Positions 28,996 to 41,878 of a stretch of DNA of 42,842 nucleotides are shown in pieces (within the stretch, counting starts at the first letter, position 1; each line of letters starts with the position of its first letter). The position numbers and the translations under genes were made by a program. Source of the stretch: Chitinophagaceae bacterium (lineage in GTDB: Bacteria > Bacteroidota > Bacteroidia > Chitinophagales > Chitinophagaceae); the NCBI GenBank assembly GCA_947455215.1, contig CANGNA010000035.1, positions 1-42,842 on the forward strand, given 5' to 3'. The notes beneath the pieces are model-generated. The model had not been told where the DNA came from, ran no database searches, and saw only the letters and a program-made list of their open reading frames with translations.

Positions 28996-29029
28996 CTACC
29001 TACGTGTGCCTATGCAGGTTTTGCGGTTT

Positions 29030-29070
29030 CTGCCGGTTTTTATTTTTTGCAAGTTGCCGGCAGTTTTATT
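29030..29070 (+). terminator. Hairpin with T-rich tail, shared with 41.6 kb
   Basis: CTGCCGG (29030-29036) and CCGGCAG (29057-29063) flank a 20-base A/T loop; TTTTATTTT follows on the plus strand. It could end the Rieske transcript. The same hairpin, with a different loop, follows the related small gene at 41663, so it may belong to that gene unit and act on the minus strand. Confidence 0.6.
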
Positions 29071-29099
29071 TTAGGTGGAGGTACTTAGACCATTGATAA

Positions 29100-29234
29100 T
29101 TAGCCACATAATAATATTGTATTTTTTCTTCTTTCTGCATATGTGGCAGAAATGCGCAGTTTTTCTGCCGGTGGTAGTGGGGCAGCCGGCGTGGCTTTTA
29201 GGGGAGGAAAGGGCGGATGATTTGTGTTTTTCAT
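29100..29234 (-). CDS. Small conserved protein, copy 1 of a two-copy gene unit
   Basis: 44 residues, ATG at 29234-29232, stop at 29100. A Pro-rich first half (HPPFPPLKATPAAPLPP) is followed by a basic helix-like second half, AEKLRISATYAERRKNTI. A related 40-residue protein at 41663-41785 aligns without gaps over EKL...KNTI with 10 of 17 residues identical, while the first halves differ. Both genes share an identical upstream block, the same 21-base promoter spacer and a 3' hairpin, which makes a real gene more likely than chance. The start lies about 20 bases after the expected transcription start. Function unknown; size and basic charge would fit a nucleic-acid-binding or regulatory peptide (inference). 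Confidence 0.6.
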   Translation of the reverse strand: MKNTNHPPFPPLKATPAAPLPPAEKLRISATYAERRKNTILLCG

Positions 29235-29261
29235 AGTAAGAAAAAAGGGTTTTGTGAGGGG

Positions 29262-29311
29262 CAAATGTACGATGCCGGAGTACCCGTTTCCAAATAAAGA
29301 TATACACATAT
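29262..29311 (-). promoter_or_regulatory. Promoter and conserved upstream block of small gene copy 1
   Basis: On the minus strand TTTG (29294-29291), a 21-base spacer and TACATTTG (29269-29262) form a full Bacteroidota promoter. The 24 bases at 29288-29311, covering the -33 element and 17 bases upstream, are identical to 41855-41878. Confidence 0.8.
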
Positions 29312-41469: not shown

Positions 41470-41608
41470 GTCCCGATGTGGGTGGCTGCATTACAGCTTT
41501 ATACTGTATACTTACTACTTTTTACTCTTTTAAAAGTGTGCAAAGGTCGGGAAAAATAGGGAGATTACAGATGGCTTGTTGTACTATCTAAAAGTGCTAC
41601 CTCAATTT

Positions 41609-41650
41609 CTGCCGATGAAAAAAAATGACAGTTGCCGGCAATTTTACTTT
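41609..41650. terminator. Hairpin shared with 29.0 kb
   Basis: CTGCCG (from 41609) and CCGGCA (41635-41640) can pair across an A-rich loop. TTTCTGCCG and AGTTGCCGGCA are conserved with 29027-29062 while the loop differs. On the minus strand it follows the small gene at 41663. Confidence 0.5.
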
Positions 41651-41662
41651 AGATACAGGGGT

Positions 41663-41785
41663 TTATTGTGCTGTTTTGCAAGGGGTTGCTGATATGGTGT
41701 TTTTCTTTCTATTTGCAGTATCTGCAATTTTGTGCAATTTTTCTGAACCATGATTTACAGGATCTAAGGATATGGGGGATCTCAT
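41663..41785 (-). CDS. Small conserved protein, copy 2 of a two-copy gene unit
   Basis: 40 residues, ATG at 41785-41783, TAA ending at 41663. It begins MRSPISLDPVNHGS and continues EKLHKIADTANRKKNTI, which aligns without gaps to EKLRISATYAERRKNTI of copy 1 at 29100-29234; a short tail ISATPCKTAQ follows. The second half should be a basic amphipathic helix. The mRNA leader (about 35-40 bases) is C/A-rich with almost no G, so it is probably unstructured. Promoter spacing and the upstream block are shared with copy 1. No family is recognised; the pairing of the two copies is what supports it as a gene. Confidence 0.58.
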   Translation of the reverse strand: MRSPISLDPVNHGSEKLHKIADTANRKKNTISATPCKTAQ

Positions 41786-41828
41786 TTTGTTGGGGTTTGG
41801 AGTGTTTGGGAAAGGGTTTGTTGTGGGG

Positions 41829-41878
41829 TAAAGATACGGTTTGGAGGGGGCGTATTCCAAATAAAGATATACACATAT
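41829..41878 (-). promoter_or_regulatory. Promoter and conserved upstream block of small gene copy 2
   Basis: On the minus strand TTTG (41861-41858), a 21-base spacer and TATCTTTA (41836-41829), one base off the TAnnTTTG consensus. The block 41855-41878 is identical to 29288-29311 over 24 bases. Confidence 0.75.

What the first reader, a model, noticed from the sequence alone, without database searches (positions are those of the whole stretch)
29030..29311. Two-copy small gene unit (copy 1 here, copy 2 at 41609-41878) with shared promoter, ORF core and 3' hairpin
On the minus strand both loci show, in order: an identical 24-base block ending in -33 TTTG, a 21-base spacer of differing sequence, a -7 TAnnTTTG/A box, a short leader, a 40-44 codon frame, and a hairpin built on TGCCG/CGGCA with a variable loop. 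The frames align without gaps over EKL...KNTI (10 of 17 residues identical) although the first halves are unrelated. Conservation of regulatory spacing and reading frame while other bases drift suggests selection on a small expressed gene family, not a decayed repeat. I know no described family with this sequence.
Basis: partly seen in the sequence, partly recalled or inferred. Interest (0 to 1): 0.76.

Follow-up and report, generated by a model that had tools for sequence, protein, structure and literature searches.

The report
Multicopy structured non-coding RNA repeat family
What looked like two copies of a tiny protein gene are two members of a large family of repeated DNA units that look like small transcription units for folded, non-coding RNA; related species carry differently spelled versions, and what the RNA does, if it is made, is unknown.

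Summary
The two loci are real but belong to a family: 38 cores at E<=0.01 in this 4.2 Mb genome. The small-protein reading fails: in the nine copies nearest copy 2, changes fall evenly on codon positions (20/18/17) without synonymous excess (0.184 against 0.262 expected), and the first ATG after the promoter opens the proposed frame in 13 of 38 units. A synonymous excess between subgroups comes mostly from one codon. RNA structure fits better: a 5' hairpin covaries in nine chosen copies, a long-range stem has one fully compensated pair. Of ten congeners, G004 and G010 carry many related units and G005 at least one. Their stems covary as a whole, though not cleanly for every arm type. In G004, 22 of 24 exact boxA motifs, as in its rRNA spacer, follow the units' promoter block. 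Best reading: interspersed non-coding transcription units, many with an rRNA-type antitermination leader; the window copies lack a clear boxA. Transcription and function are inferred. A mobile repeat without RNA function remains open.

The parts
29020..29184 (-). Copy 1, structured core of the unit
   Evidence: match of model R1, 134 bits; a seed of that model
29288..29311 (-). Copy 1, conserved 24-base block upstream of and including -33 TTTG (29294-29291)
   Evidence: 23 genomic sites of its 18-base part with up to 2 mismatches, control 0
29262..29269 (-). Copy 1, -7 box TACATTTG
   Evidence: 21 bases from -33
29100..29234 (-).
29135..29141 (-). Copy 1, 5' arm of the long-range stem (TATGCAG)
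   Evidence: alignment A2 columns 49-55
29057..29063 (-). Copy 1, 3' arm of the long-range stem (CTGCCGG); can also pair with the 3' hairpin partner
   Evidence: A2 columns 130-136; local hairpin
29030..29036 (-). Copy 1, CCGGCAG, alternative partner of CTGCCGG in the 3' hairpin
41599..41762 (-). Copy 2, structured core of the unit
   Evidence: match of model R1, 142 bits; a seed of that model
41855..41878 (-). Copy 2, conserved 24-base block including -33 TTTG (41861-41858)
41829..41836 (-). Copy 2, -7 box TATCTTTA
   Evidence: 21 bases from -33
41663..41785 (-).
41713..41719 (-). Copy 2, 5' arm of the long-range stem (ACTGCAA)
   Evidence: A2 columns 49-55
41635..41641 (-). Copy 2, 3' arm of the long-range stem (TTGCCGG)
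   Evidence: A2 columns 130-136
41610..41614 (-). Copy 2, CGGCA, partner of TGCCG (41640-41636) in the 3' hairpin

Best explanation
Each unit is a small non-coding transcription unit that has spread as an interspersed repeat. RNA polymerase starts at the TTTG-21-TAnnTTTG promoter. In a subset of copies the RNA begins with a hairpin, and in many congener copies this is followed by boxA, the signal by which NusB and S10 protect untranslated RNA such as rRNA from termination. The body folds into a long-range stem around a loop domain; its 5' arm comes in short tandem copies and its 3' arm once or twice. Shown by computation: family size, no coding constraint in the subgroup that keeps the frame, stem covariation, the boxA match to the rRNA spacer of G004, and an architecture shared with congeners. 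Inferred: that the units are transcribed, that boxA works there, and that the product acts as RNA. My guess for the role is a trans-acting or protein-binding RNA made from many loci; no target or partner was found or tested.
For: Family: 38 cores, promoter block 23 sites, control 0. Not coding: codon positions 20/18/17 and synonymous fraction 0.184 against 0.262 expected in nine copies. 5' hairpin in nine copies: 87.5% of cells paired against 77.4% shuffled, 14 both-side-changed cells against 5.4 (0 of 500 each). Long-range stem in 32 copies: 87.1% paired, 12.9-46.4% when slid, end pair GC 16, AU 10, GU 6. Congener cores: 82.3% paired against 75.2% shuffled, 49 both-side-changed cells against 19.5 (0 of 500 each); own arms pair better than permuted arms, -27.1 against -23.1 kcal/mol, 0 of 5000. 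boxA: 24 exact sites in G004, control 0; 22 have the promoter block within 180 bases upstream and 21 a core within 450 bases downstream; one is in the 16S-23S spacer. Kinship: R1 gives 29 matches at E<=1 in 144 kb of congener loci, best 6.4e-4; 27 overlap cores on the same strand.
Against: No expression data. The window copies have no boxA that I would call, and the own genome has only 4 exact sites, of which one is in a family-A unit. Hairpins before boxA are short: 4 of 34 sites reach p<0.05 singly; 4 of 26 in the own genome. The nine copies were picked because they showed the hairpin. For the long-range stem, shuffles pair almost as often (85.2%), and only one of seven pairs has changes on both sides; the number of pairs with both-side changes is not above shuffles (353 of 500). 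Arm matching is uneven: type II 5' arms clearly prefer their own type (-34.3 against -20.7 and -18.6), but type I 5' arms pair almost as well with type II 3' arms (-26.0 and -25.1), and type III slightly better with type II (-25.2) than with its own (-23.8). RNAalifold finds only 9 pairs in A2, and the reverse strand is close behind (-4.97 and -3.82). Synonymous excess appears in pairs between subgroups in the proposed frame (258 of 632, 0.408 against 0.238 expected); 162 of the 258 come from one codon.
Confidence: 0.55

Rival explanations
1. A mobile or recombining DNA repeat (BIME- or MITE-like mosaic) with no function as RNA: the arms are recognised as DNA, for example by a REP-associated tyrosine transposase, and the promoter is carried along.
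For: Three of six Y1_Tnp matches lie within about 1.2 kb of a unit; with 38 units the chance is about 4e-4 (test chosen after the fact). Palindromic REP pairs lie beside copy 1 and beside the transposase genes. Modules recombine: the same promoter block with another body, cores without the block, cores in series at 7 of 38 G004 loci. For two G010 units the two flanks lie at different G004 loci (L317, L319).
Against: Five of 16 G010 units share both flanks with one G004 unit and six more share one flank, so the units are not highly mobile now. G-U pairs are frequent in the stems, which speaks for RNA. boxA behind the promoter is hard to explain for DNA alone. I did not search systematically for target duplications or empty sites.
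Confidence: 0.27
2. A cis-acting 5' leader (portable promoter plus regulatory RNA) for the gene downstream.
For: In the own genome 29 of 38 units have a co-oriented downstream frame (two-sided p 0.0017), 17 against 3 in tandem regions; another frame caller gives 32 of 38 by my count. Seven of these start 8-48 bases behind the core.
Against: No bias in G004: 19 of 37 loci with a downstream frame. Copy 1 faces a convergent Rieske gene. prfC behind copy 2 has its own promoter-like motif, also present without the unit within 700 bases in six congeners, nearly identical in three. Downstream genes show no theme that I recognise (gene names from memory). Frames were called greedily.
Confidence: 0.08
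3. A family of small expressed proteins.
For: Nine copies keep the frame, ATG and stop nearly unchanged; pairs between subgroups show a synonymous excess in this frame.
Against: No third-position or synonymous excess inside that subgroup; 16 of 38 units have no ATG-started frame through the anchor codon, one of them without an anchor match; the between-subgroup excess comes mainly from one codon (162 of 258).
Confidence: 0.03

Closest known systems
FopS, family of paralogous sRNAs of Bacteroides (Rfam RF04319; PMC11697453, passages read)
   Same: Multicopy RNA family in Bacteroidota, canonical sigma-ABfr promoters, mostly intergenic copies
   Different: FopS RNAs are about 65-70 nt with a Rho-independent terminator; here the core alone is about 165 nt, ends without a U-run in copy 1, and scores 15.3 bits on the opposite strand against a gathering score of 56
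BOX elements of Streptococcus pneumoniae (PMC3049150, passages read)
   Same: Interspersed modular repeats with a variable number of internal modules, folded RNA, chance reading frames
   Different: Here a promoter and, in congeners, boxA precede the folded body; BOX is said to be over-represented between convergent genes, which I did not see
REP/BIME repeats with RAYT transposases (PMC3733652, one passage read; otherwise recalled)
   Same: Interspersed palindromic repeats; transposase genes near three units
   Different: Core of about 125-165 nt with long-range arms and a loop domain instead of a 20-40 bp palindrome
boxA antitermination leaders of rRNA, phage and CRISPR transcripts (PMC12691694, passages read)
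   Same: GYTCTTTGACAT behind the promoter of many congener units, as in the G004 rRNA spacer
   Different: Short dispersed units, not long rRNA, phage or CRISPR transcripts; action of boxA here is inferred

Membership tests
FopS sRNAs | Match to the Rfam model | tested here: not met
   No gathering match in the window; 15.3 bits, opposite strand, gathering 56
FopS sRNAs | Length of about 65-70 nt with Rho-independent terminator | tested here: not met
   Core of about 165 nt; 3' hairpin of copy 1 is followed by AAACC, not by a U-run; real ends unknown
FopS sRNAs | Multicopy in one genome | tested here: met
   38 cores
BOX elements | Modular interspersed repeat with variable internal copy number | tested here: met
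   Tandem arm copies vary in number in congener cores; architecture only
BOX elements | Sequence kinship with pneumococcal BOX | not tested
   No BOX sequence was fetched
REP/BIME with RAYT | 20-40 bp tagged palindrome as the repeated unit | tested here: not met
   Core alignments A2 and A5
REP/BIME with RAYT | RAYT gene associated with the repeat | tested here: inconclusive
   3 of 6 Y1_Tnp matches near units, post hoc
boxA antitermination leader | Motif equal to the rRNA boxA of the same genome, behind a promoter | tested here: met
   G004: 22 of 24 sites behind the promoter block, 1 in the rRNA spacer. Not met in the two window copies
boxA antitermination leader | NusB/S10-dependent antitermination | not testable with these tools
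   Needs an experiment
Small protein family | Synonymous or third-position excess in the frame | tested here: not met
   between-subgroup excess carried mainly by one codon

The most novel reading that the evidence does not exclude
A genus-wide class of dispersed non-coding transcripts that borrow the rRNA antitermination signal, and whose paired arms are re-spelled together in each lineage, so that many loci per genome feed one sequence-specific RNA system, for example a protein-binding or guide-like RNA whose partner co-evolves with the arm motif.
Probability: 0.2. Interest if true: 0.82.

Novelty: new variant of a known kind. Interest (0 to 1): 0.55.

Why it matters
boxA is known from rRNA, phage and CRISPR transcripts (PMC12691694, passages). 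Finding it behind the promoter of dozens of short dispersed units would add a new user of that machinery and suggest that they are made as untranslated RNA. Arms that differ between lineages while the fold is kept would offer a natural experiment for finding a partner. It also warns that conserved small reading frames in such genomes can be translations of RNA stems.

Tried and rejected
Protein on the reverse strand: open and hydrophobic in some copies, broken by stops in others. RT, retron or DGR link: one RT in the genome, on C31, where no core was found. Leader of prfC: not borne out by congeners. tRNA association: no tRNA in 35 own sources or 38 G004 loci. Phage or plasmid origin: one chance-level match in each collection. 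R1 in 11 genomes of the genus found only the own genome, although G004, G010 and G005 do have units, so absence by R1 is weak evidence. R2 in 147 genomes of the family gave one match each in 3 genomes, E 0.002-0.006, under stricter filters; two of them lie just upstream of a tRNA gene, the third looked like coding sequence to me; R2 also found nothing at E<=0.01 in the own genome. Literature: searches gave no description of such a family in their listings; preprints and most subscription journals are not held. An earlier count of orthologues (11 of 16) did not hold: L317/L291 was a wrong pair, and one search replaced it.

Full report
Observation. Both loci are as described on the minus strand: identical 24-base block, -33 TTTG, 21-base spacer, -7 box, frames of 44 and 40 codons, TGCCG/CGGCA hairpins. 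The count of two is wrong. blastn in the same genome gave 59 matching pieces at E<=10. A covariance model from 32 aligned copies (A2; mean column identity 62%) found 38 cores at E<=0.01, the 32 seeds among them. The promoter block occurs 23 times with up to two mismatches, its reversed control 0 times. A second kind of body, two ACACCCGGT boxes about 45 bases apart, follows the same block at some sites (C20, C52, C10), and two loci have both bodies (C9, C46).

Not a protein. In the nine copies nearest copy 2, minimal changes by codon position are 20, 18 and 17, and synonymous single changes are 0.184 against 0.262 expected. Among the 23 other copies of A2 they are 0.225 against 0.244. Pooled over all copies the frame shows 0.303 against 0.240. 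That excess comes from pairs between the two groups (258 of 632, 0.408 against 0.238), and 162 of the 258 are one codon. I read it as one old difference counted many times, not as coding. An ATG-started frame runs through the anchor codon in 22 of 38 units (one had no anchor match), and the first ATG behind the -7 box opens it in 13.

RNA structure, own genome. RNAalifold on A2 gives 9 pairs at -4.97 kcal/mol, column shuffles near 0, the reverse strand -3.82. A long-range stem that I named from the arms is paired in 87.1% of 224 cells, 12.9-46.4% when slid, but shuffles reach 85.2% on average (10 of 500 as high). Its end pair is GC 16, AU 10, GU 6 with none broken; it is the only one of seven pairs with changes on both sides. 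A 5' hairpin behind the promoter shows 87.5% pairing against 77.4% shuffled and 14 both-side-changed cells against 5.4 (0 of 500 each), with 5 of 8 pairs changed on both sides (24 of 500 shuffles as high). Those nine copies were chosen because they fold; of 26 units with a recognised promoter 4 reach p<0.05 singly, one of them trivially.

Congeners. blastn of copy 1 in 59 genomes gave 4 with a match, the own one included. The weak G010 match led to a unit with 21 matches in G010 and 26 in G004 at E<=0.1. The architecture is shared: block TTTTGTGAATATCTTTATTT, promoter, often a small hairpin, GYTCTTTGACAT, often a REP palindrome, then a core with short tandem 5' arms, a loop domain with CCCTTACCCACA, and one or two 3' arms. 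G004 has at least three arm types (GGCGG/CCGCC, GTGGCAG/CTGCCAC, GTGGAAG/CTTCCAC). Model R2, built from 38 such cores, marks 46 cores in 38 loci of G004. G005 has a version (L258). Kinship with the own units: R1 gives 29 matches at E<=1 in 144 kb, best 6.4e-4, 27 of them on cores; the reverse search is weak (best 0.26).

Covariation between types. With types set by the 3' arm alone, 56 cores average -27.1 kcal/mol with their own 3' arms and -23.1 (sd 0.57) with permuted ones (0 of 5000); 48 of 56 beat the mean of other types. The signal is uneven: type II 5' arms prefer their own type strongly, type I pairs about equally with I and II, and type III slightly better with II than with III. On a MAFFT alignment of 38 cores two nested helices pair in 82.3% of cells against 75.2% shuffled, 28.1-53.1% when slid, with 49 both-side-changed cells against 19.5; the number of such pairs (5) and of pair types is not above shuffles. 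An alternative pairing also scores (80.6%), so alternative folds are possible. G-U pairs are common, which points to RNA.

boxA. The 16S-23S spacer of G004 holds GTTCTTTGACATATTGG, its 16S leader GTTCTTTGAAAGATTGG. The exact 12-mer occurs 24 times in G004, 25 in G010, 4 in the own genome (controls 0, 0, 1). Of the 24 in G004 one is the rRNA spacer, 22 have the promoter block within 180 bases upstream, 21 have a core within 450 bases downstream, and one (L351) has neither. In the own genome looser forms follow the hairpin in some units; the window copies show none that I would call. The name boxA is from memory plus the rRNA match. Hairpins before boxA are short, and 4 of 34 sites reach p<0.05 singly.

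Position and stability. Testing outer flanks only, 5 of 16 G010 units share both flanks with one G004 unit, 6 more share one flank, two have flanks at two different G004 loci, the rest are weak or too short. In the ten usable pairs the core is more alike than the upstream flank in 9 and than the downstream flank in 9; forced global alignment lowers flank identity. Downstream frames are co-oriented in 29 of 38 own units but 19 of 37 G004 loci, so the units look free-standing rather than leaders. Three of six Y1_Tnp matches lie near units, which keeps a mobile-repeat origin open; such an origin and a function as RNA do not exclude each other.

Known relatives. No Rfam family matches the window at gathering. 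Permissive scans of copy 1 gave chance-level matches on the other strand; five congener loci gave matches below gathering or, in one case above it, away from the unit. FopS, BOX and boxA leaders are the nearest precedents; none is met in full.

Changes after checking.

Noticed in passing
window 41471-41441 (-): A short direct repeat, ACTTACGACTTACGACTTTAGACTTACGACT, lies between copy 2 and prfC; congeners have short repeats of another spelling there.
   Followed up: no
window 29420-29370 (-): Two adjacent REP-like palindromes (GGCGTAGTCTCCCGACTACG, CGGGAGTCTCCTGACTCCCG) lie upstream of copy 1; similar pairs flank RAYT-type transposase genes of this genome.
   Followed up: partly
L039, L030, L011, L099 (own genome, C63, C53, C14, C3): RAYT-type Y1 transposase genes of about 183 aa; the C14 copy is cut to 118 aa with the rest of the reading frame displaced behind it.
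   Followed up: partly
L361 about 1550-1650, L362 about 1530-1620: The loop-domain sequence (AAACC.TTACC.ACA..GCATTTCAGC-like) lies just upstream of a tRNA-Phe and a tRNA-Lys gene in two other genera of the family.
   Followed up: partly
L317 and L319 against L290/L291 and L289/L297: The two flanks of one G010 unit lie at two different G004 units, so units may be rearrangement breakpoints.
   Followed up: no
L288, L311, L294 and others, upstream of the promoter: ATATCCACA ... TGTGGATAT inverted repeats resembling DnaA boxes (consensus recalled) lie before many congener promoters.
   Followed up: no
L358 (own genome C33), L018, L037, L040: A second repeat body, ACACCCGGT-N45-ACACCCGGTTT followed by a T-run, shares the promoter block; C33 holds an array of it.
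   Followed up: no
L349 2812-2856 (+): Rfam Acido-Lenti-1 RNA above its gathering score (42.5 against 37) near a G004 unit but outside it.
   Followed up: no
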